From: a bacterium
GTDB lineage: Bacteria; JAMCPX01
Assembly: GCA_021787655.1 (NCBI GenBank)
Contig: JAJYLM010000004.1
Location: 1 to 34,788 of the forward strand
DNA length: 34,788 nt
Direction: 5' to 3'
A program made the position numbers and the translations under genes. The notes under the pieces are model-generated. The model did not search any database and had not been told where the DNA came from. It worked only from the letters and a program-made list of their open reading frames with translations. Below, one piece after another: positions 17,451 through 34,769 of this stretch. Each line of letters starts with the position of its first letter. Position 1 is the first letter of the stretch.

Positions 17451-17617
17451 AGGTTCTCCGGTTTTTCTTCTGTATCACAATTCTTCGGAGATGTGAACCG
17501 ACATCGAACTTTCCCTAATTTTTTTCTGGTTTTCGCTGGTATACCTATAGCCCCTGTTCATTGTACTCTGCCGCGTATGTTTGCCTTCCTTTGCGAATCG
17601 TTAGGCTCTGTTGTTAG

Positions 17618-18763
17618 CTATGTTTTTTTGCATTTTGGGCACGAGGTCTGACACTTTCTACAATACGTTTTACCGCACTGCTGACACGGCTTTAAACAAT
17701 GCATGCAGACGATATGCAAATGATCATCGCATACAAGACTGGCGGTCTCACGAAAACAGGACTCGCAGCTCAACGGATCTAATTGTCTATACAGGGGATT
17801 ATAGGTAACAGAAAATTGTCTTGATGCGAGTCTCCTTTTTATTGTTATGCGGCACTGAATAGCCTGTGTGTGTATGGCGATTGCTCCCACGGTCTCCCCT
17901 GTTATGCGCAGGGAATATTTTGCAACCAAGTCCCGTATCTTCCATTCCTGCTCAGACGCTATCGCGGTAAGCTTACCGCGTAGCTTGCTCACATACTCTT
18001 CCGATACTTCTCCAGCGATAGGTGTATTTGTAGATGCATCAACAGTGTTGTTGCCTGTTTTTTTCGCAATCATATCCTTTGTTTGTGTCTTCAGTGTCTC
18101 ATAATACTCATATACCCTCCGGATATCACGGTTGAGTCTTCTTTCAAGGCTCTTGCTAAAACCTGCCATTTCTGCTTCTACCAATTTTGGGGCCGCTCTG
18201 TTGGCAACGTCATACAGCCTTTTCATGGTATCTATAGAGATAGTAGCAGGCCCCTGGTACTCTGTCAGACCTTCCAGTATCTCCGTATCGTGTAGCGCGA
18301 TGACAGAACTGTTGATGTTATTTACCATAATGGGCAGCCAGCCTTCATGCTTCTCATCCGACAACGCGGTATATTTTACAAAAAACAGTATATAAACGAT
18401 TTCTGTCATCTCTGTCGTGTCTATGCGCAAGGTAGCGTTATCAAAGCCTATCTTTTGTGCAACCATGGCTGATACCTTTTCTACGCCGGGTAACTTTGCC
18501 TCAAAGCCGGCAAAGGCAACCCTGCCCGTTAGATCAAGAAGTTTTTTGACAGACAGAAAAAAACCGGAATCATAAGAGGCATAAATTGCACTATCGTGTC
18601 CATGATTGTAAGAGAAGCATAAGGTTGTATATTCTGGTATATTCAGCATTCTAGCTACACGTTGCGGAAGGATAATGGCCATACCGCCGTCCTCCTGTCG
18701 CTCCGTAACAGCACCGTTGAGCATCAATATATTTTCAATAATGTCGGGAAGTGCCTTGCTCAT
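17618..18763 (-). CDS. Unknown protein with cysteine-rich C-terminal zinc-ribbon-like tail; helicase partner
   Basis: I do not recognise the family. 381 aa. Residues 1-330 show no known motif; about 200-290 is helical and charged (KSLERRLNRDIRRVYEYYETLKTQ), possibly coiled coil. The last 49 residues hold five CxxC pairs (333/336, 353/356, 360/363, 368/371, 375/378), one extra Cys (345) and several His. That is enough for two or three zinc sites of ribbon or treble-clef type. Its ATG overlaps the stop of the upstream SNF2 helicase gene (ATGA), so the two are translationally coupled and probably act together. Plausible roles are nucleic-acid recognition or a protein-contact platform for the helicase; this is inference. 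Codon use is AT-richer than in the flanking housekeeping genes. Confidence 0.85.
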   Translation of the reverse strand: MSKALPDIIENILMLNGAVTERQEDGGMAIILPQRVARMLNIPEYTTLCFSYNHGHDSAIYASYDSGFFLSVKKLLDLTGRVAFAGFEAKLPGVEKVSAMVAQKIGFDNATLRIDTTEMTEIVYILFFVKYTALSDEKHEGWLPIMVNNINSSVIALHDTEILEGLTEYQGPATISIDTMKRLYDVANRAAPKLVEAEMAGFSKSLERRLNRDIRRVYEYYETLKTQTKDMIAKKTGNNTVDASTNTPIAGEVSEEYVSKLRGKLTAIASEQEWKIRDLVAKYSLRITGETVGAIAIHTQAIQCRITIKRRLASRQFSVTYNPLYRQLDPLSCESCFRETASLVCDDHLHIVCMHCLKPCQQCGKTYCRKCQTSCPKCKKT

Positions 18764-21066
18764 GTCTCGTAATCTTCACCGAATATCGCAGTATCAATGG
18801 ATTTTGATTTAAAATAATCGTTCTTCGCCTTGACAAGGTCATTGCCAAGTTTTTCGAAGTTCTGCTTCAATACGGTGCTGTTTTTACTTTCAGCCCATAA
18901 TGTTAGTATTATCTCTTCAAAGTCCCTGTCTTCCCCAAGATGCCCGAGGATCGGCTCTATCTCGCCTATGACCATCTCGAACATGTTGATCTTGCTGTCC
19001 AGAATTTCGATAATGTAATCCTCGATAGTTCCCCTTACGGTGAGATTGAATATAAAGATATCCCTTGCCTGCCCTATCCTGTGAAGCCTTCCAATTCTCT
19101 GCTCTATCCTCATGGGGTTCCACGGAAGGTCAAAGTTTATAATGGTGTTGCAAAACTGCAGGTTCCTTCCCTCACCGCCTGATTCCGTAGAGACGAGCAC
19201 AGGGACATCGTCCTTGAAGCCTGCAATGGCTGCGTCTTTCTCCTTGAGGGACATCGTTCCCTTGAATGTTCTATACGCGATGCCGCTCTTTGACAGGAGA
19301 TCGCCTATATACTCCATACTCTTTATAAACTGGGTAAACACGACCTTTTTTTCTGTGGGATTTTTTTGCAGTATCCCAAGCAGGGCATCACCTTTGCTTA
19401 TGTTGTTTGTTCCATCGAGCTTCCTGAGAACGTCTCGCAACCCTTCTTTGTCTTCCCTGTGGAGCAGGCTCTCTTTCAAAGCAACCAAGCTGCTTCCCGC
19501 CTCTCTCAGAAGGATATTGACCGACATTCTGGGTACTTCGTGTTCCATCAAATATTGGTTGATGTCAGTATATATTTCTTTTTCCATTGGCGTGGGATCG
19601 AGCCGTATCGTTGTCGCAAAACGCCTTGGTAATTTAAGGTCTATCGCACTCCTCGTGTTTCTTATCATGACGTCCCTCAGCAGCCCCCGCATTTTCTCCT
19701 TATCCGCAGTACCCTTGAGCCCCCCTTTGCTGAGATATTCTTTTTTAAATTCTTTTTCTGTCTTGAACTGACCTGGTTTTAACAGCGTGATCAGGTTGAA
19801 CAGATCGATGAGGTTGTTCTGGACAGGGGTTGCAGTAAGAAGGAAGATAAACCTTTTTTTTATCCGGTTTACGAGCTTCCATGAAAGTGTGGACCTGTTC
19901 CTGAGATGGTGTGCCTCATCGACAACAACGAGGTCGTAAAATTGATTTTCAACAAGCTCTCTGTTCCTGCTTCCCTTCGCAGTATTCATGGAAGCAATTA
20001 TAAAACGTTGTTTCCAGAAGTCTTCCGGTGCTTTCATAAAAGCAGGGTCGTCCGTGGTAAGAAACGCTATGTCGAATTTTGTCTGCATTTCTTCTTTCCA
20101 CTGTGAAACAAGCGATGCAGGCGTGAGCACCATGATATTCTTAACCATCCCCCTCATGACATATTCCTTTATCAACATGCCCGCCTCTATGGTTTTGCCG
20201 AGACCTACTTCATCACACAATAAAACACTGCCATGAAAATGTTTGAGGACCTTCTTTACCGTCTCTGTCTGATACCAGTATTTTTCTATACCGTTTACTG
20301 CATTCAGGCACAGAAGCTCGTCGTATCCGCCTTGAATCGAGAGCCGTTCATAATCTATCAACGATTGTATTTGTGAAAGAGAAGCATGCGCTGTAAAAAG
20401 AGAGGCATCTTCTTTAAAAAGCTCTGTTTTTATTGGAATGGTATACGTTGGTATTGGAATTTGCGGTAGTGATTGGCCTTCAAAAGAAGCCGGATGACTA
20501 TATGTATTGGTCTGGTCCGTGGATGCAGGCAGTGCTTGTGCTTTCTTCTGTCGTGTTACCTCTGCGTTCTGTACTTTCTTCTTTTGTTTTTCGTCGACAT
20601 ACTGAAGCGTACGCGTTTGATTCTCTATGAAACTGAAGGGACGCTGAGCGGATATTATGCCCGATTCACCGTTTCTGATGTATTTCTCCAGGTCCGAAAA
20701 TATCTTAACGGGACGAAGCCATGTTTTGTCTGTTCTTTGTTTGCGCTCGAGTTCTTTTGCCCTTGTAAGATGCTCACGTGCAGCGGAGAATTGTCCAACC
20801 GAAGCCTCGGCACTGCTGAGGCTGTAATAGGTCTCCCATTCGGATGTAATGACTGCCAGCCGTTTGAACCAGGGTATGCTCATGTCGGGCCTTGCCCATT
20901 CATGAATGCACAGAGAAATCATACTCATCAAGAGATCTCTATCGTCTGGAAATTGGTGTAGCAGCTTCTTCAGGCAATCGTATGCCTTCTTATATTCCTT
21001 TTTTGTGAGAAATTTCAGATATGCGTTTAATGTATCATCAGGTGTTTCGTACAGCATGTCTGTCAT
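18760..21066 (-). CDS. SNF2/RapA-type helicase-like ATPase with TPR-like N-terminus
   Basis: 768-aa superfamily 2 translocase. Residues 1 to about 125 are helical, with TPR-like character (YLKFLTKKEYKKAYDCLKKLL, SAEASVGQFSAAREHLTRAKEL). About 130-240 is a low-complexity, Lys/Gln/Pro-rich linker. The ATPase core has motif I DEVGLGKT (285-292), motif Ia LTPASLVSQWKEE, motif II DEAH (383-386) and motif III LLTATPVQNN (409-418). It continues with VVFTQF, motif V STESGGEGRNLQ (626-637) and motif VI QRIGRLHRIGQ (656-666). All core motifs are intact. The HRIGQ form is typical of SNF2/RapA translocases that move on duplex DNA without strand separation. The gene overlaps its cysteine-rich partner. The start ATG 21066 has only a distant GAGAGGA; ATG 21057 is an alternative. 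Likely accessory DNA, possibly defence (inference). Confidence 0.92.
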   Translation of the reverse strand: MTDMLYETPDDTLNAYLKFLTKKEYKKAYDCLKKLLHQFPDDRDLLMSMISLCIHEWARPDMSIPWFKRLAVITSEWETYYSLSSAEASVGQFSAAREHLTRAKELERKQRTDKTWLRPVKIFSDLEKYIRNGESGIISAQRPFSFIENQTRTLQYVDEKQKKKVQNAEVTRQKKAQALPASTDQTNTYSHPASFEGQSLPQIPIPTYTIPIKTELFKEDASLFTAHASLSQIQSLIDYERLSIQGGYDELLCLNAVNGIEKYWYQTETVKKVLKHFHGSVLLCDEVGLGKTIEAGMLIKEYVMRGMVKNIMVLTPASLVSQWKEEMQTKFDIAFLTTDDPAFMKAPEDFWKQRFIIASMNTAKGSRNRELVENQFYDLVVVDEAHHLRNRSTLSWKLVNRIKKRFIFLLTATPVQNNLIDLFNLITLLKPGQFKTEKEFKKEYLSKGGLKGTADKEKMRGLLRDVMIRNTRSAIDLKLPRRFATTIRLDPTPMEKEIYTDINQYLMEHEVPRMSVNILLREAGSSLVALKESLLHREDKEGLRDVLRKLDGTNNISKGDALLGILQKNPTEKKVVFTQFIKSMEYIGDLLSKSGIAYRTFKGTMSLKEKDAAIAGFKDDVPVLVSTESGGEGRNLQFCNTIINFDLPWNPMRIEQRIGRLHRIGQARDIFIFNLTVRGTIEDYIIEILDSKINMFEMVIGEIEPILGHLGEDRDFEEIILTLWAESKNSTVLKQNFEKLGNDLVKAKNDYFKSKSIDTAIFGEDYET

Positions 21067-21103
21067 CTACAGATTTTTGTTCCTCTCATAAAAATAAGTT
21101 AGT

Positions 21104-21109
21104 AGTATA
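21104..21109 (-). promoter_or_regulatory. Possible -10 element for the helicase cassette
   Basis: On the minus strand TATACT lies 37 bases before the helicase ATG in an AT-rich stretch (TTTTTTATGCTTATACTACT). I see no good -35 at 17 bases, so this is only a weak candidate. The rest of the 150-bp gap to the hydrolase gene shows nothing else I can support. Confidence 0.3.
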
Positions 21110-21216
21110 AGCATAAAAAAGAAACTTTGCATCATTTTGTAATCGCGTAAAGGGGCACGGCGGGTAAAACGTCCGGGCTTATGACGCTGAGCATGGGCGT
21201 GCTCCCTTTTCCTGTG

Positions 21217-30017: not shown

Positions 30018-30047
30018 GGGGCGCGTTCAGACGCTGCCCCTTTTTTT
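30018..30047 (+). terminator. Rho-independent terminator after the DUF2892 gene
   Basis: GGGGCGCGT (30018-30026) pairs with ACGCTGCCCC (30031-30040) around TCAG. That is nine base pairs with a single bulged T, followed by seven T. The T-run overlaps the end of the convergent rubrerythrin gene. Confidence 0.85.
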
Positions 30048-30549
30048 AAAATTTTTTAAACCGTTCTATCTTCGCACCGCAAACGGGACACACAGCAGGG
30101 GCTTCTCCCTCGACTGTAAATCCGCAGACATCGCAGATATAGAGGTCACCGAGAGCGATGTCCTTCCCCTGATCGACTGTCTGTTTCGCTTTCGTGTACA
30201 TCTCTTCATGCACCTTTTCAGCCTCAAGAGCGTAATTGGTCGACCTGACTGCAGTCTGTTCTTTCTGGAGTTCCGCCACGGTCTTGAACGCCGGATACAT
30301 CTCTTCGACCTCGTAGGTTTCACCATCGATTCCGGCCTGGAGGTTTTTTGACGAATCGTTGATTTCTCCAAGAGCACGGTAATGGTTGGTGGCGTGTACC
30401 TGTTCCGCAAATGATATCGCCTTGAACAACCGCGCGAGGTTGGCTTTTTTCTCCCGTTCCGCCCGTTCAGAGAAAATCAAATACTTCATGTGTGCCTGGG
30501 ATTCCCCTGCAAAAGCAGCACGGAGATTTTGTTCCGTCATTTTTCTCAT
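30046..30549 (-). CDS. Rubrerythrin
   Basis: Non-haem iron peroxidase that reduces hydrogen peroxide in anaerobes and microaerophiles. The N-terminal four-helix diiron domain has the carboxylate ligands in AAFAGESQAHMKYLIFSERAE, SFAEQVHATNHYRALGEI and EAEKVHEEMY. The C-terminal rubredoxin-like iron site is CDVCG...CPVCG (ICDVCGFTVEGEAPAVCPVCGA). The 167-aa length is on the short side of normal. GGGAG six bases before ATG 30549 supports the start. It lies only 13 bases after dnaN and is likely co-transcribed with it, an unusual arrangement. Confidence 0.95.
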   Translation of the reverse strand: MRKMTEQNLRAAFAGESQAHMKYLIFSERAEREKKANLARLFKAISFAEQVHATNHYRALGEINDSSKNLQAGIDGETYEVEEMYPAFKTVAELQKEQTAVRSTNYALEAEKVHEEMYTKAKQTVDQGKDIALGDLYICDVCGFTVEGEAPAVCPVCGAKIERFKKF

Positions 30550-30562
30550 ATCATTCTCCCTG

Positions 30563-31657
30563 TTACATCCTCATCGGCATGATCAGATTCAAATGTTTTT
30601 TGTTGTCGTCTGCATAAAAGGTGCTTGCACTCTGCTCGTTGTTGAACCCGAGGGTGACAAATTCGCCCTCAATAGAGTTCAAACAGTCAATCAGGTACTT
30701 GCCGTTGAACCCGATCTTGAGAGGCTCTTTTTTATACTCTATTTCAAGCTCCTCTTTGACTTCTCCGATATCCGGCTCGTTGCTTTCGACGACAAAGCTG
30801 TTCTCGTTCATGGTGAAGATGACCCGAGATATTTTTTCCTGATAGATCGATTGTGCCCTCTTGACAGCTGCGACGAGTTCTTCTTTTTTGAGCTTGATGT
30901 TGATTTTGGTCTCCGGCGGAATAACCGACTTGTAATCCGGGAAGTCATAGTCGAGCAGCCGTATCTGAATAATCGTGTTTCCTATCCTGACGATGAAATT
31001 CTTATTTTTTTCGATGGCTATTCCGACTTCCTTTTCTGTTCCTATTTTCTTGATCTCATAAAGACCTTTCCTTGGAACGATGATACCTTTCGTCAATCCT
31101 TCTATGGCGTTGATCTCTGCATCTTCATACATTGCAAGACGGTGACTGTCCGTTGCAACACACCTCAGATTATCGGCAATCTTTTCTATATAAACACCGT
31201 TCAGACTGTACTTGACCTCGTCCATCGATGTCGCATAGATCGTTTTATCGATCATCGTTAAGAGCTTCTCGTACGTTAAGGTCGTATAATTGCCTTTATA
31301 CTCGTCGATATGCGGAAAATCCTCGGCCTGTAATACCTTCAGTCTCCCGGATATCTTTCCCGTACTGATCAGAATAAAACCATCATCCTGTTTTATGCGG
31401 ATATCCCTGTCCGGCAGTTCCCGTATATAATCGTAAAATTTCTTAGCAGGTATTGAAACCTGACCCTGGCTGGCAATACTGCAGTTTATCTTACTGATAA
31501 TAGTAACTTCAAGGTCCGTGCCGATAATAGTCAGGGTTTCTTTATCTGCTATCATCAGGATATTGGACAAAATAGGCATCGTCGCCTTTCGTTCGGTAGC
31601 TCCGATAACCTTACTGATCTCGATCATCAATATTCTTTTATCTATGGTCAGTTCCAT
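30563..31657 (-). CDS. dnaN: DNA polymerase III beta subunit (sliding clamp)
   Basis: Ring-shaped clamp that tethers polymerase III to DNA. The protein opens MELTIDKRILMIEISKVIGATERKATMPILSNILM. The three-domain fold shows typical segments: GTDLEVTIISKI, VSIPAKKFYDYIRELPD, YSLNGVYIEKIADNLRCVATDSHRLAMYE, IVPRKGLYEI and FNGKYLIDCLNSIEGEFVTLGFNNE. The C-terminus HLNLIMPMRM is the conserved end. 364 aa is normal. AGGAG lies six bases before the ATG. Downstream of dnaA by 185 bases, with a weak terminator and DnaA-box-like sites between. It is followed by rubrerythrin rather than recF and gyrB. Confidence 0.97.
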   Translation of the reverse strand: MELTIDKRILMIEISKVIGATERKATMPILSNILMIADKETLTIIGTDLEVTIISKINCSIASQGQVSIPAKKFYDYIRELPDRDIRIKQDDGFILISTGKISGRLKVLQAEDFPHIDEYKGNYTTLTYEKLLTMIDKTIYATSMDEVKYSLNGVYIEKIADNLRCVATDSHRLAMYEDAEINAIEGLTKGIIVPRKGLYEIKKIGTEKEVGIAIEKNKNFIVRIGNTIIQIRLLDYDFPDYKSVIPPETKINIKLKKEELVAAVKRAQSIYQEKISRVIFTMNENSFVVESNEPDIGEVKEELEIEYKKEPLKIGFNGKYLIDCLNSIEGEFVTLGFNNEQSASTFYADDNKKHLNLIMPMRM

Positions 31658-31703
31658 GTGTTTCTCCTAATAGGTTTTTAATTTTAATAGTAATAAAGAG
31701 TGT

Positions 31704-31725
31704 GAAAAAAGAGAGCATGCGCTCT
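31704..31725 (-). terminator. Weak hairpin terminator between dnaA and dnaN
   Basis: In the minus-strand RNA AGAGC-GCAT-GCTCT makes a five-bp stem with a four-base loop, followed by CTTTTTT. It could partly terminate dnaA transcripts before dnaN. Confidence 0.4.
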
Positions 31726-31786
31726 ATACTATTGAAATCGTTGTACCTCCGCATGTTTGTCCATGTTTATTGTCTTGTTCATAGTT

Positions 31787-31828
31787 TGTTGATAAATAAT
31801 ATAAAAAATAAATTGCAACTTATCAACA
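31787..31828. promoter_or_regulatory. Inverted pair of TTATCAACA sites between dnaA and dnaN (possible oriC part)
   Basis: TGTTGATAA (31787-31795) and TTATCAACA (31820-31828) are exact inverse copies, in a very AT-rich stretch. Each differs from the DnaA-box consensus TTATNCACA at one position. The location in the dnaA-dnaN gap is a classic place for a replication origin. Confidence 0.45.
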
Positions 31829-31842
31829 ACTTTTTAAAGAGA

Positions 31843-33156
31843 TTATCCTAACCCTTTTTTTATCTTTTCAACAGCGTCCTTGATGCTTTGGTTCTCCTGG
31901 ATCATCCCGGAAATTTTATTCACGGAGTGAATGACCGTAGAATGATCCTTATTTCCAAACTGGAGCCCGATCTCCGGGTATGAAGCGTTCGTGAGCGTGC
32001 GGGACAAAAACATGGCAATCTGCCGCGGGAGTGCAATGAACTTCATCCGCTTATTCGAGAGAAGGTCGGAAACCTTGATCTTGAAGTGCATCGCAACGGC
32101 CTTTTGTATGTCGTCGATGGTAAGCCACTTGTCTTTTTTCCGGATCAATCCGGACAGGACTTCTTTTGCAACGTGGATGTTGAGTTTCGTCTTGGTCAGC
32201 AAGGCGTACGCGGAGAGCCGGGTCAGATAGCCTTCAAGTTCACGGATGTTCGACTGGGTGTTGTAGGCGAGAAAAAATGCAATTTCGTCATCGATGCCAA
32301 TGTGGTCGTCCTCTGCCTTCTTTTTGATGATCGCGACCTTTGTCTCGATATCAGGTACCTGGATATCTGCTATGAGCCCCATTTCGAACCTGCTCCTCAG
32401 ACGTTCCTCGATATTGGGTATCTCTTTCGGAAGCTTGTCCGACGTAAACACGATCTGTTTTTTTTCTTCATACAGCGTGTTGAACGTGTGAAACATTTCT
32501 TCCTGGGAGCGCTCCTTGTTGGAGATGAACTGGATATCGTCGATCAGTAAGACATCGCAGTTCCGGTATACCTCACGGAACAGATCCATCTTCCGGTCCC
32601 TGAGGTGGTTGACGAGATCGTTCACGAAATTCTCGGTCGTAATGTAAATGATGTTCAGGCCGTTATGCTCGTTGTCGATGAGGTTGCCGATCGCATTGAT
32701 GACATGGGTTTTTCCCAGCCCGACCCCGCCATAGATGAAGAGAGGGTTGTATGCCTTCCCGGGGTTCTGGGATACGGCAATTGCAGCGGCACTTGCGAAT
32801 TTATTCGATTCGCCGACGACGTAATTATCGAAGGTATAATTTTTGAGAAGTCCCTTGGAGTTGTTCAGGGGAATAAACCCGGCAGGTGGCAGTTTCTGGC
32901 TGTTTGTCTCTAAATCTTCTCTGTCATCGATGACCAGTTCGACACTCGTGGTATCATTCAGGAGTGTCCTTGCCAGCTTGACGATATCTTCATGGTAATG
33001 ACTCTTAATCCAGTCCAGCGAAAAATCATCCGGAACACCAAGGACCAGAGCATTATTGTCAAAACTCAATGGATTTAAAATAGTTATCCACGGATCATCA
33101 TTCGTATCTTTATACATACTGACAAGTTCTTTTTTTATCTTTTCCCAAGCTTCCAT
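31843..33156 (-). CDS. dnaA: Chromosomal replication initiator protein DnaA
   Basis: AAA+ initiator that binds DnaA boxes and opens oriC. Domain I is MEAWEKIKKELVSMYKDTND...PLSFDNNALVLGVPDDF. After a linker comes YTFDNYVVGESNKFASAAAIAV, Walker A GGVGLGKTH and Walker B VLLIDDIQFI. The sensor region is VFTSDKLPKEIPNIEERLRSRFEMGL, with RELEGYLTRL further on. Domain IV ends in the DNA-binding signature GNKDHSTVIHSVNKI. The track start 33234 is an extension. ATG 33156, with GGGAGG four bases upstream, gives 437 aa. An insertion sequence sits about 340 bases upstream and is transcribed towards dnaA. Confidence 0.97.
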   Translation of the reverse strand: MEAWEKIKKELVSMYKDTNDDPWITILNPLSFDNNALVLGVPDDFSLDWIKSHYHEDIVKLARTLLNDTTSVELVIDDREDLETNSQKLPPAGFIPLNNSKGLLKNYTFDNYVVGESNKFASAAAIAVSQNPGKAYNPLFIYGGVGLGKTHVINAIGNLIDNEHNGLNIIYITTENFVNDLVNHLRDRKMDLFREVYRNCDVLLIDDIQFISNKERSQEEMFHTFNTLYEEKKQIVFTSDKLPKEIPNIEERLRSRFEMGLIADIQVPDIETKVAIIKKKAEDDHIGIDDEIAFFLAYNTQSNIRELEGYLTRLSAYALLTKTKLNIHVAKEVLSGLIRKKDKWLTIDDIQKAVAMHFKIKVSDLLSNKRMKFIALPRQIAMFLSRTLTNASYPEIGLQFGNKDHSTVIHSVNKISGMIQENQSIKDAVEKIKKGLG

Positions 33157-33492
33157 TGAGCCTCCCTTATAATTAGCATATAATTTGTTGTGTAACTTGT
33201 TGAGATCAAAAGCAAACCAACGAGAGAAACACACAAGTTTTTCAACACCTGTGGAAAACTTAAAAAGTCGTTATAAAATAAATAATTATAGCTCATATTA
33301 TCTGTTTTTTTTCAGGCGTTTGCAGTATCAGTTGCAGCCTTTTTGAAACAATATATAGTATGGTCCAAAAAATAACCACAACGTGTTGTTTTTATATAAG
33401 ATATTGAAATATAAAAACAAATTAGCTTTTTTCATGACCTCATATTATGCAATAATAGTTGCTTGTCAAGCTTTTAATTATATATTTTATAC
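33157..33492. promoter_or_regulatory. AT-rich dnaA upstream region with DnaA-box-like palindrome (possible oriC)
   Basis: 336 bases without a gene, very AT-rich. At 33239-33258 TTTTCAACA and TGTGGAAAA (reverse of TTTTCCACA) face each other across two bases, inside a longer near-palindrome (AAGTTTTTCAACA / TGTGGAAAACTT). Both half-sites are one or two changes from TTATNCACA. A further near-box, TTATCCACG, lies just inside dnaA (33084-33092). These fit an origin or dnaA autoregulatory site. I could not pick a convincing dnaA promoter. Confidence 0.45.
33482..33491 (+). repeat. Target-site duplication, left copy
   Basis: ATATTTTATA immediately outside the left IS end, identical to the right copy at 34770-34779. 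The pair shows that the element inserted by transposition into an AT-rich site. Confidence 0.85.
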
Positions 33493-34769
33493 CACTACTG
33501 TCCGGTTAAAATAAAGCAAGCTGATGGTCCAATTTATTCAGCTTATGCAGGTTATACTGGTTGATGGACAATAAGTCAATGATTGAAACCTTAAAAAACA
33601 CCGCTTCTGAGAGAATCCTCGTGAGCTCTGTGAGCGACTTGGCGTATTTGGTCTGGTATTTTATATAAGCGAGCAACAGATAGTAGCACATGGCTACCCA
33701 TATCTGAGTCAATACCGCATTCTTATTTGTTCCGAGGAATGATTTTATCTTGAGGTTTTGTTTTATCCATTTAAAAAACAGTTCTATCTGCCAGCGGGAC
33801 TTGTAAATCTGTGTAATGGTGAATGCAGACAGCTTAAAATTATTGGTGAGAAATATAAGCTCTTTCCCTTTTTCAGGGTCTTGATAGCCCACCAGTCTGA
33901 GCTGGTTCGGGTATTTCTTACTCGTATAAAAGCCCGTAAGCCGGATGGTCTGGTCAAATAACAGACCCTTTTTTCTCTCCACATCCTGCTGTCCGATAAC
34001 CGAGTAGTTGATATTGCTCTTTGCCCGTGTGACAAAGAAAACCCCTTTATTATTAAGGGAATTCAACCAGTTATAATCAATGTACCCCCTGTCAACAGAA
34101 ACGATGCTGTCCGGTAACAAGGGAAATGCTTCCTCTTTTACCACTTTTGTTTCATGATGCTTGGCATCCGTTACAACCAGAAAGGATGGGATTGACCCGC
34201 TGTGGTCATACTGATAGTGCAGTTTCAATGCGCCTTTGGTCTTTCGGAACTTTGCCCAGGGATACATGGAAAGACATAGGTCGATGACCGTAGCGTCAAT
34301 GCTGTACAGAGGATTCTTGAACCGAAACTTGTGCTTGGGCGTTACGTCCTTGGTCTTGTTCAGTATCGCATAGAAAAGCTTCTCATATACCTCGTAGCTG
34401 CGGCTTCTGTTCGCATCGGATATGGTGGAACGGTGAATATCTTGTAACCCCATATGATACCATGCTGCTTTATGAGTATTCAGAGAGGTTATGATGTCCC
34501 GCAGGGAATCTTTCCCCTTCATCTGGGCATACAACAGGGTTATAAACTGCTGCCAGGTGGTGTAATACTTTATATACCGGTCGTTTTGATACGTGCTTAC
34601 CAGCGACTCGAATTTGTATCTCGGTACAATTTGTAGCAATTCATTGAGCACTGTGTTAAGAGAACTCATAGCTTGGGCCTCCTTTGTTTATCACTATTAG
34701 CAAGCGATAGGGTACATTACCCCACTGGAGGCTTCAAGCATTTTTACAGATTTTTACCGGACACGAGTG
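33493..34769 (-). mobile_element. Complete IS4-family insertion sequence with inverted ends and 10-bp target duplication
   Basis: The left end CACTACTGTCCGGTTAAAAT (from 33493) and the inverse of the right end CACTCGTGTCCGGTAAAAAT (ending 34769) agree at 17 of 20 positions. The flanks carry the identical direct repeat ATATTTTATA at 33482-33491 and 34770-34779, a target-site duplication of the length expected for IS4-type elements. One extra C at 33492 leaves the exact left boundary open by one base. The element is about 1277 bp with a single transposase gene whose stop lies inside the left inverted repeat. It appears intact and possibly recent. Confidence 0.9.
33506..34669 (-). CDS. IS4-family DDE transposase
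   Basis: 387 aa. The N-terminal region (NELLQIVPRYKFESLVSTYQ, YYTTWQQFITLLYAQMKGKDSLRDII) matches the DUF4372-type DNA-binding domain of one IS4 subgroup. The RNase H-like core has D125 (YSIDATVIDLC), D193 (VDRGYIDYN) and E296 (in YKSRWQIELFFKWIKQ). That last segment fits the IS4 signature Y-x2-R-x3-E-x6-K exactly (Y289, R292, E296, K303). All catalytic residues are present and the frame is open, so the protein should be active. GGAGG lies eight bases before the ATG. The TAA stop is in the left inverted repeat. Transcription points at dnaA. Confidence 0.95.
   Translation of the reverse strand: MSSLNTVLNELLQIVPRYKFESLVSTYQNDRYIKYYTTWQQFITLLYAQMKGKDSLRDIITSLNTHKAAWYHMGLQDIHRSTISDANRSRSYEVYEKLFYAILNKTKDVTPKHKFRFKNPLYSIDATVIDLCLSMYPWAKFRKTKGALKLHYQYDHSGSIPSFLVVTDAKHHETKVVKEEAFPLLPDSIVSVDRGYIDYNWLNSLNNKGVFFVTRAKSNINYSVIGQQDVERKKGLLFDQTIRLTGFYTSKKYPNQLRLVGYQDPEKGKELIFLTNNFKLSAFTITQIYKSRWQIELFFKWIKQNLKIKSFLGTNKNAVLTQIWVAMCYYLLLAYIKYQTKYAKSLTELTRILSEAVFFKVSIIDLLSINQYNLHKLNKLDHQLALF

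What the first reader, a model, noticed from the sequence alone, without database searches (positions are those of the whole stretch)
17618..21066. Two-gene cassette: TPR-SNF2 ATPase overlapping an unknown cysteine-rich zinc-ribbon protein
The genes overlap by four bases (ATGA), are AT-richer than the housekeeping genes on both sides, and sit between an unrelated hydrolase gene and a PilZ gene. All SNF2 motifs are intact (DEVGLGKT, DEAH, QRIGRLHRIGQ), fused to a TPR-like N-terminus. The partner has five CxxC pairs in its last 49 residues and a body I cannot assign. SNF2-like translocases recur in phage-defence systems (for example DrmD in DISARM), but the methylase, PLD and DUF1998 partners of DISARM are absent. 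A compact two-component DNA-surveillance or defence module is a reasonable hypothesis; a transcription-recycling role like RapA is the alternative.
Basis: partly seen in the sequence, partly recalled or inferred. Interest (0 to 1): 0.72.

Follow-up and report, generated by a model that had tools for sequence, protein, structure and literature searches.

The report
Split RapA-like motor in two genes
Two overlapping genes, sitting as an insertion between ordinary neighbours, appear to encode a RapA-like DNA motor (RapA clears stuck RNA polymerase in E. coli) cut into two proteins, and the unknown second protein is the detached tail half of such a motor, which gives a testable role to a widespread family of unknown function that includes Bacillus YqhG.

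Summary
The cassette is real: an intact SNF2 ATPase (768 aa) and a 381-aa partner with five CxxC pairs, overlapping by ATGA and AT-rich (GC 0.44 against 0.51-0.63 for the adjacent genes). The pair is a conserved two-gene unit. All 89 loci examined that carry this SNF2 type also carry the partner (one as YqhG). Across 386 genomes the two genes co-occur in 20 genomes (1.5 expected), four times unlinked. The window's copy is an insertion: in a congener the flanking lipase and PilZ genes are adjacent.

The partner, unassignable by family search, is a remote homologue of Pfam YqhG, so the pair is a distant cousin of Bacillus YqhH-YqhG. Its AlphaFold2 model (pLDDT 91.7) significantly matches only E. 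coli RapA. Profile alignment places it on RapA's C-terminal half, starting about where the SNF2 protein always stops (93-107 residues after motif VI). The pair is therefore a RapA-like motor split in two, with TPRs in place of RapA's N-terminal domain and an added zinc ribbon.

Defence is not supported for this clade, although haloarchaeal cousins lie in DUF499/DUF1156 defence loci. Removal or recycling of stalled RNA polymerase is the most likely role, by inference. A new variant of a known kind.

The parts
18760..21066 (-). Motor gene: TPR-SNF2 ATPase, 768 aa
   Evidence: ORF; Pfam SNF2-rel_dom and Helicase_C; core 64% identical to the homologue in G480 and up to 71% to Nitrospirota homologues
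20740..21042 (-). N-terminal TPR repeats (aa 9-109), in the place where E. coli RapA has its N-terminal domain
   Evidence: 29 of 36 homologous N-termini hit Pfam TPR_14; AF2 helices 9-109 with pLDDT about 97; Foldseek best hits are TPR structures
18967..20349 (-). SNF2 ATPase core (aa about 240-700)
   Evidence: Pfam; alignment A1 with motif residues conserved
20191..20214 (-). Walker A / motif I DEVGLGKT
   Evidence: sequence
19909..19920 (-). Walker B / motif II DEAH
   Evidence: sequence
19069..19101 (-). Motif VI QRIGRLHRIGQ
   Evidence: sequence
18763..19068 (-). C-terminal tail of the SNF2 protein, 102 residues after motif VI, ending at the fixed split point (93-107 in 87 homologues; fused RapA has 361-383)
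17618..18763 (-). Partner gene: detached RapA-type C-terminal half, 381 aa, remote homologue of YqhG (PF11079)
   Evidence: AF2 pLDDT 91.7; Foldseek: only RapA significant; hhalign with YqhG 98.6-99.3% and with RapA C-terminal tail 89-94%
18449..18763 (-). Partner domain 1 (aa 1-105), alpha/beta, aligned with RapA's Spacer region; no conserved catalytic acids seen
   Evidence: secondary structure; profile alignment starting at RapA_C position 90; conserved columns
17798..18433 (-). Partner domain 2 (aa 111-322): antiparallel sheet with two long helices (200-237, 255-282) inserted, the topology described for RapA's CTD
   Evidence: topology described in PMC12839542 section 27
17627..17767 (-). 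C-terminal zinc-ribbon-like segment with five CxxC pairs (aa 333-379); present in 35 close homologues, absent in cyanobacterial ones
18760..18763 (-). ATGA overlap of the two genes (translational coupling inferred)
   Evidence: sequence
17451..21216 (.). Inserted segment: absent between the orthologous lipase and PilZ genes of congener G002 (105 bp apart) and of G006 (about 57 bp apart)

Best explanation
The cassette encodes a two-subunit, RapA-type SWI/SNF motor. The first gene makes the DNA-translocating ATPase with a TPR N-terminus. The second makes the Spacer-plus-CTD half that RapA and related helicases carry in the same chain, with an added zinc ribbon. Translational coupling (ATGA) would make equal amounts, and the two proteins would assemble into one RapA-like particle. 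SHOWN here: the two-gene unit and its co-occurrence, the partner's remote homology to YqhG, its RapA-like predicted fold, the fixed split point, the TPR N-terminus, and the insertion between syntenic neighbours. INFERRED: that the proteins bind each other; that the particle sits on RNA polymerase or nucleic acid through the TPR, Spacer and zinc-ribbon surfaces; and that ATP-driven DNA translocation dislodges or recycles stalled RNA polymerase, as RapA does. I put the split-RapA architecture at about 0.88 and the RNA-polymerase-directed function at about 0.5.
For: Partner fold: AF2 pLDDT 91.7, pTM 0.80. Of all PDB chains only three RapA structures match significantly (E 2.1e-6 to 7.5e-6, prob 1.00, about 320 columns), including 8spg, which lacks RapA's N-terminus. 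Profile match to RapA's C-terminal tail: prob 89-94, score 53-62 against at most 21 in 30 column-shuffled controls; it begins at about residue 110 after motif VI, and SNF2 proteins of the family always end 93-107 after motif VI. The partner's sheet with two inserted long helices is the topology given for RapA's CTD (PMC12839542). Homology to YqhG: prob 98.6-99.3, score 117-152 against at most 19.5 shuffled; YqhG loci also have the SNF2 gene upstream. Obligate pairing: 89 of 89 loci (with L003 through YqhG); 20 co-occurrences against 1.5 expected in 386 genomes, 4 of them unlinked; distance-matrix correlation r = 0.96 over 69 pairs. Functional leads on relatives: B. subtilis YqhH (HepA) is described as RNAP-interacting and RapA-like (PMC7385302); [quoted passage not shown] RapA removes stalled RNAP (PMC9303389).
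Against: Foldseek TM-scores to RapA are low (0.30-0.32, rmsd 11-14 A), so the match is by domain topology, not one rigid body, and the tool gives no residue ranges. The profile match to RapA from the close group alone is weak (prob 11.5); it needs the full family profile. By sequence the ATPase scores higher with DISARM DrmD models (268 bits) than with RapA (215 bits), and the RapA ATPases lie on a long separate branch, though the AU test does not reject grouping with them. RapA's Tudor N-terminal domain is not found. No data on binding to RNAP exist for any member with a zinc ribbon. Patchy, insertion-like, sometimes plasmid-borne distribution is unusual for a plain transcription-maintenance factor.
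Confidence: 0.58

Rival explanations
1. Anti-phage defence module: the pair is a nucleic-acid surveillance motor that recognises and obstructs foreign DNA or phage transcription, like the RapA-shaped helicases of BREX type 3 and DUF499 (BR) systems, or DrmD of DISARM.
For: Patchy, insertion-like distribution; plasmid copies in cyanobacteria, Rhodovastum and haloarchaea; seven of ten inspected haloarchaeal pairs sit with DUF1156 and/or DUF499 genes, systems whose helicase is RapA-shaped (PMC12839542); best PADLOC model is DrmD.
Against: Bacterial copies have no recurrent third gene and no nuclease, methylase or sensor partner; the partner shows no conserved nuclease motif; ten window neighbours give no PADLOC hit; PADLOC hits among 162 flanking genes are scattered; none in viral contigs; cousins YqhH-YqhG are chromosomal genes with sporulation and UV phenotypes.
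Confidence: 0.25
2. DNA repair or replication-conflict motor: the pair works on damaged or branched DNA directly rather than on RNA polymerase.
For: B. thuringiensis YqhH is reported to hydrolyse ATP and unwind DNA in vitro, and its deletion lowers UV survival (PMC10054049); loss of B. subtilis hepA (yqhH) under PcrA depletion lowers survival on MMS (PMC7385302).
Against: Both phenotypes also fit removal of stalled RNA polymerase at lesions; the partner's only structural relative is RNAP-bound RapA; the relatives are distant (37-38% identity in the motor).
Confidence: 0.12
3. Maintenance or transfer aid of mobile elements, carried by chromosomes after integration.
For: Insertion between syntenic genes and plasmid copies near partition, relaxase or toxin-antitoxin genes.
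Against: No flanking repeats or att-like ends around the window copy; most homologues lie on ordinary contigs without conserved mobile genes beside them.
Confidence: 0.05

Closest known systems
Bacillus YqhH (HepA) - YqhG (PF11079)
   Same: Same two-gene order, SNF2 motor lacking a C-terminal half plus downstream partner; partner remotely homologous over about 270 columns.
   Different: Window partner does not hit PF11079; it has a zinc ribbon that YqhG lacks, and the motor has TPRs; the locus is an accessory insertion.
E. coli RapA (HepA)
   Same: SNF2 motor core; partner has the RapA Spacer+CTD fold; combined domain order equals RapA.
   Different: Two polypeptides instead of one, TPR instead of the N-terminal domain, extra zinc ribbon, motor sequence far from RapA, no PF12137 hit in this genome.
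BrxHII of type 3 BREX and the helicases of DUF499 (BR) systems
   Same: Described as RapA-shaped: SNF2 core, degenerate REase-like domain, CTD with two coiled-coil helices (PMC12839542); haloarchaeal split pairs sit at DUF1156/DUF499 loci.
   Different: Fused chain there; no DUF499 ATPase or methylase partner beside the window pair.
DISARM DrmD
   Same: Highest-scoring defence SNF2 model (268 bits).
   Different: Far below the cut-off (950 bits), C-terminal half fused in DrmD, no DISARM genes nearby; separate clade.

Membership tests
E. coli-type RapA | Curated model NF003426 (cut-off 576 bits) | tested here: not met
   215.5 bits
E. coli-type RapA | RapA_C (PF12137) sequence match | tested here: not met
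   no match in G000
E. coli-type RapA | Spacer+CTD fold | tested here: met
   fold present but on a separate gene
E. coli-type RapA | Single polypeptide with Tudor-type N-terminal domain | tested here: not met
   two genes; TPR N-terminus
E. coli-type RapA | Binding to RNA polymerase and stimulation by it | not testable with these tools
   needs biochemistry
YqhH-YqhG pair | PF11079 match of the partner | tested here: not met
   no hit in the window partner; the G059 partner does hit, 158 bits
YqhH-YqhG pair | Profile-level homology of partner and gene order SNF2 then partner | tested here: met
   prob 98.6-99.3, shuffled controls at most 0.6; order
DISARM | DrmD above cut-off (NF038318, 950 bits) | tested here: not met
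   268.3 bits
DISARM | drmA, drmB, drmC or methylase genes adjacent | tested here: not met
   neighbours are housekeeping genes without PADLOC hits
DUF499 (BR) systems | DUF499 ATPase and DUF1156 methylase adjacent | tested here: not met
   absent beside the window pair; seven haloarchaeal cousins have DUF1156 and/or DUF499 genes nearby

The most novel reading that the evidence does not exclude
YqhG, the zinc-ribbon partner and the haloarchaeal partner are one family of detached RapA-type C-terminal subunits, so split RapA motors form a pan-prokaryotic, horizontally moving class of two-part machines that serve RNA polymerase in some lineages and have become the helicase of DUF499 defence systems in haloarchaea.
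Probability: 0.35. Interest if true: 0.75.

Novelty: new variant of a known kind. Interest (0 to 1): 0.6.

Why it matters
It gives a structural identity to a family of unknown function (YqhG and relatives) and explains why it always travels with an SNF2 motor that lacks a C-terminal half. That turns an open annotation problem into a direct test in B. subtilis: do YqhH and YqhG form one RapA-like particle on RNA polymerase? The same architecture appearing beside DUF499 defence genes in haloarchaea offers a route to compare transcription-recycling and defence uses of one machine.

Tried and rejected
Single-sequence searches of the partner in Pfam, NCBIfam, PADLOC and PDB gave nothing usable; the weak Peptidase_M26_N and RING hits were dropped as below cut-off. 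A profile search of the partner against PDB sequences did not find RapA, so the RapA link rests on fold and on profile-profile comparison. Viral contigs gave no relative. A DISARM or other multi-gene defence system was rejected for lack of partners; the flank tally has no matched background, so weak enrichment cannot be excluded. No fused SNF2-partner protein turned up among the loci. Insertion ends: no flanking direct repeats or att-like sites. A comparison of SNF2 tails with other SNF2 C-termini gave an implausible score, probably because of mixed-length rows, and was not used. The PcrA paper's statement that YqhH binds RNAP cites other work that I did not read.
Full report
OBSERVATION. The ATPase has intact SNF2 motifs and Pfam SNF2-rel_dom and Helicase_C matches; the partner has no family match above any cut-off. 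GC is 0.44 in both genes against 0.51-0.63 in the adjacent genes, although the dnaN-dnaA end of the window is equally AT-rich.

IT IS AN INSERTION. The gene upstream (alpha/beta hydrolase) and the gene downstream (PilZ) are neighbours in relatives without the cassette. In congener G002 (99% complete) they lie 105 bp apart, and in G006, another genus of the family, about 57 bp apart. None of the eight genus and family mates examined has the partner. G001 is unresolved, since its contigs break at this very spot. No repeats or att-like ends were found at the borders.

IT IS A CONSERVED PAIR. A scan of GTDB species genomes with the family-specific SNF2 C-terminus gave 482 relatives, of which the best 80 were fetched. 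They come from Nitrospirota, Thermodesulfobacteriota, Myxococcota, Planctomycetota, Chloroflexota, Actinomycetota, Cyanobacteriota, Elusimicrobiota and others. With the plasmid copies and the G059 locus, 89 loci carry this SNF2 type, and all carry the partner: 85 by clustering, three more by frame search (L064, L084, L090), and L003 as YqhG. In two loci the partner lies 1.0 and 2.2 kb downstream (L032, L041). In a sample of 386 genomes, 23 hold the partner, 26 hold the SNF2 type (E at most 1e-50) and 20 hold both, against 1.5 expected (hypergeometric p = 2.9e-25, not corrected for relatedness). Sixteen of the 20 have them adjacent or within about 2 kb; in four (G179, G321, G366, G451) the two genes are on different contigs yet both present. 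Two of the six SNF2-only genomes (G059, G081) have YqhG instead. Distance matrices of the two proteins correlate at 0.96 over 69 pairs, against at most 0.14 in permutations; shared ancestry contributes to that figure. The SNF2 tree mixes phyla, consistent with transfer between lineages.

WHAT THE PARTNER IS. The homologous partner of G059 matches Pfam YqhG (158 bits), and YqhG genes in a sample of G059's phylum have the SNF2 gene upstream. The window-type partner does not hit PF11079, but profile-profile alignment gives probability 98.6% (close group) to 99.3% (whole family) over about 270 columns, with scores 117 and 152 against at most 19.5 for shuffled controls. The AF2 model of the window partner is confident (mean pLDDT 91.7): an alpha/beta domain, then an antiparallel sheet with two long helices inserted, then the cysteine-rich end. 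Foldseek against the PDB gives three significant hits, all E. coli RapA (E 2.1e-6, 4.3e-6, 7.5e-6; probability 1.00; about 320 columns). One of them lacks RapA's N-terminus. TM-scores are low (about 0.3), so domains agree in topology and not in one rigid arrangement. Profile alignment with RapA C-terminal tails gives probability 89-94% and score 53-62, against at most 21 in 30 shuffled controls, over about 200 columns. The close group alone is too narrow to see it (probability 11.5). The topology matches the published description of RapA and BrxHII C-termini: a degenerate REase-like domain followed by a sheet with two coiled-coil helices inserted (PMC12839542).

THE SPLIT POINT. After motif VI, the SNF2 proteins of this family run on for 93-107 residues (median 102, n = 87), while fused RapA proteins run on for 361-383. 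The partner aligns with RapA from about residue 110 after motif VI. So the partner begins where the motor ends: two genes make up one RapA-type chain. Added in this clade are a TPR N-terminus (29 of 36 homologues hit Pfam TPR models; confident helical repeat model and TPR matches) and a five-CxxC ribbon, which is present in 35 close partners and absent in cyanobacterial ones. A single origin of all split types is compatible with the data but not shown (AU p = 0.57).

HOW IT LIKELY WORKS. Established knowledge: RapA's ATPase is activated by RNA polymerase, its Spacer contacts the beta' zinc-binding domain (PMC8501970), and it is proposed to dislodge stalled polymerase by ATP-dependent backtracking (PMC9303389). 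The B. subtilis relative YqhH is described as a RapA-like, RNAP-interacting factor (PMC7385302), B. thuringiensis YqhH as an ATPase needed for full UV survival (PMC10054049), and yqhH was a hit in a screen for delayed sporulation (PMC4703394). Inference: motor and partner assemble into a RapA-like particle whose DNA translocation removes or recycles stalled RNA polymerase, with TPR and zinc ribbon as docking surfaces. Assembly, polymerase binding and the reaction itself are not shown for this pair.

THE DEFENCE QUESTION. For the bacterial clade I find no support: no third gene recurs, the window's neighbours are housekeeping genes without PADLOC hits, and PADLOC hits around 162 flanking genes are few and scattered (no matched background). 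But the architecture is shared with defence helicases, and in haloarchaea the homologous split pair (partner homology probability 98.4%, score 114 against 20 shuffled) sits in loci with DUF1156 and/or DUF499 genes in seven of ten plasmids inspected (not). DUF499 systems are reported to use a RapA-shaped helicase. Defence therefore remains the main rival, at about 0.25.

VERDICT. A new variant of a known kind: a split, horizontally moving RapA-type motor whose partner family was of unknown function. I found no paper making the YqhG-RapA link in the open library searched, which does not cover most subscription journals.

Noticed in passing
L016, L017, L212, L213, L214, L215, L218 (haloarchaeal plasmids): Split SNF2-partner pairs lie beside DUF1156 methylase and/or DUF499 ATPase genes, as if the helicase of a DUF499 (BR) defence system were split in haloarchaea.
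   Followed up: partly
L023 and L038 (Candidatus Hakubella contig NZ_BLRZ01000002.1): Two copies of the split pair about 15 kb apart on one contig, plus a third, fused SNF2 protein with a long C-terminus.
   Followed up: no
L060-L062, L064-L068, L071, L078 (Chloroflexota): Partner is about 600-680 aa, with an extra C-terminal half of unknown kind after the shared part.
   Followed up: no
G179, G321, G366, G451: Partner and SNF2 type are both present but on different contigs; in G451 the partner gene follows a tyrosine recombinase gene.
   Followed up: partly
L032:2608-3634 and L041:8294-10516: One to two kilobases of extra sequence lie between the SNF2 gene and its partner.
   Followed up: no
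window 30046-34669: AT-rich dnaN-dnaA region with a DDE transposase (DUF4372 type) upstream of dnaA, probably near the replication origin.
   Followed up: no
G001:C173 and G001:C60: Contigs of the nearest congener break on both sides of the cassette position, suggesting strain variation or an unassembled insert there.
   Followed up: no
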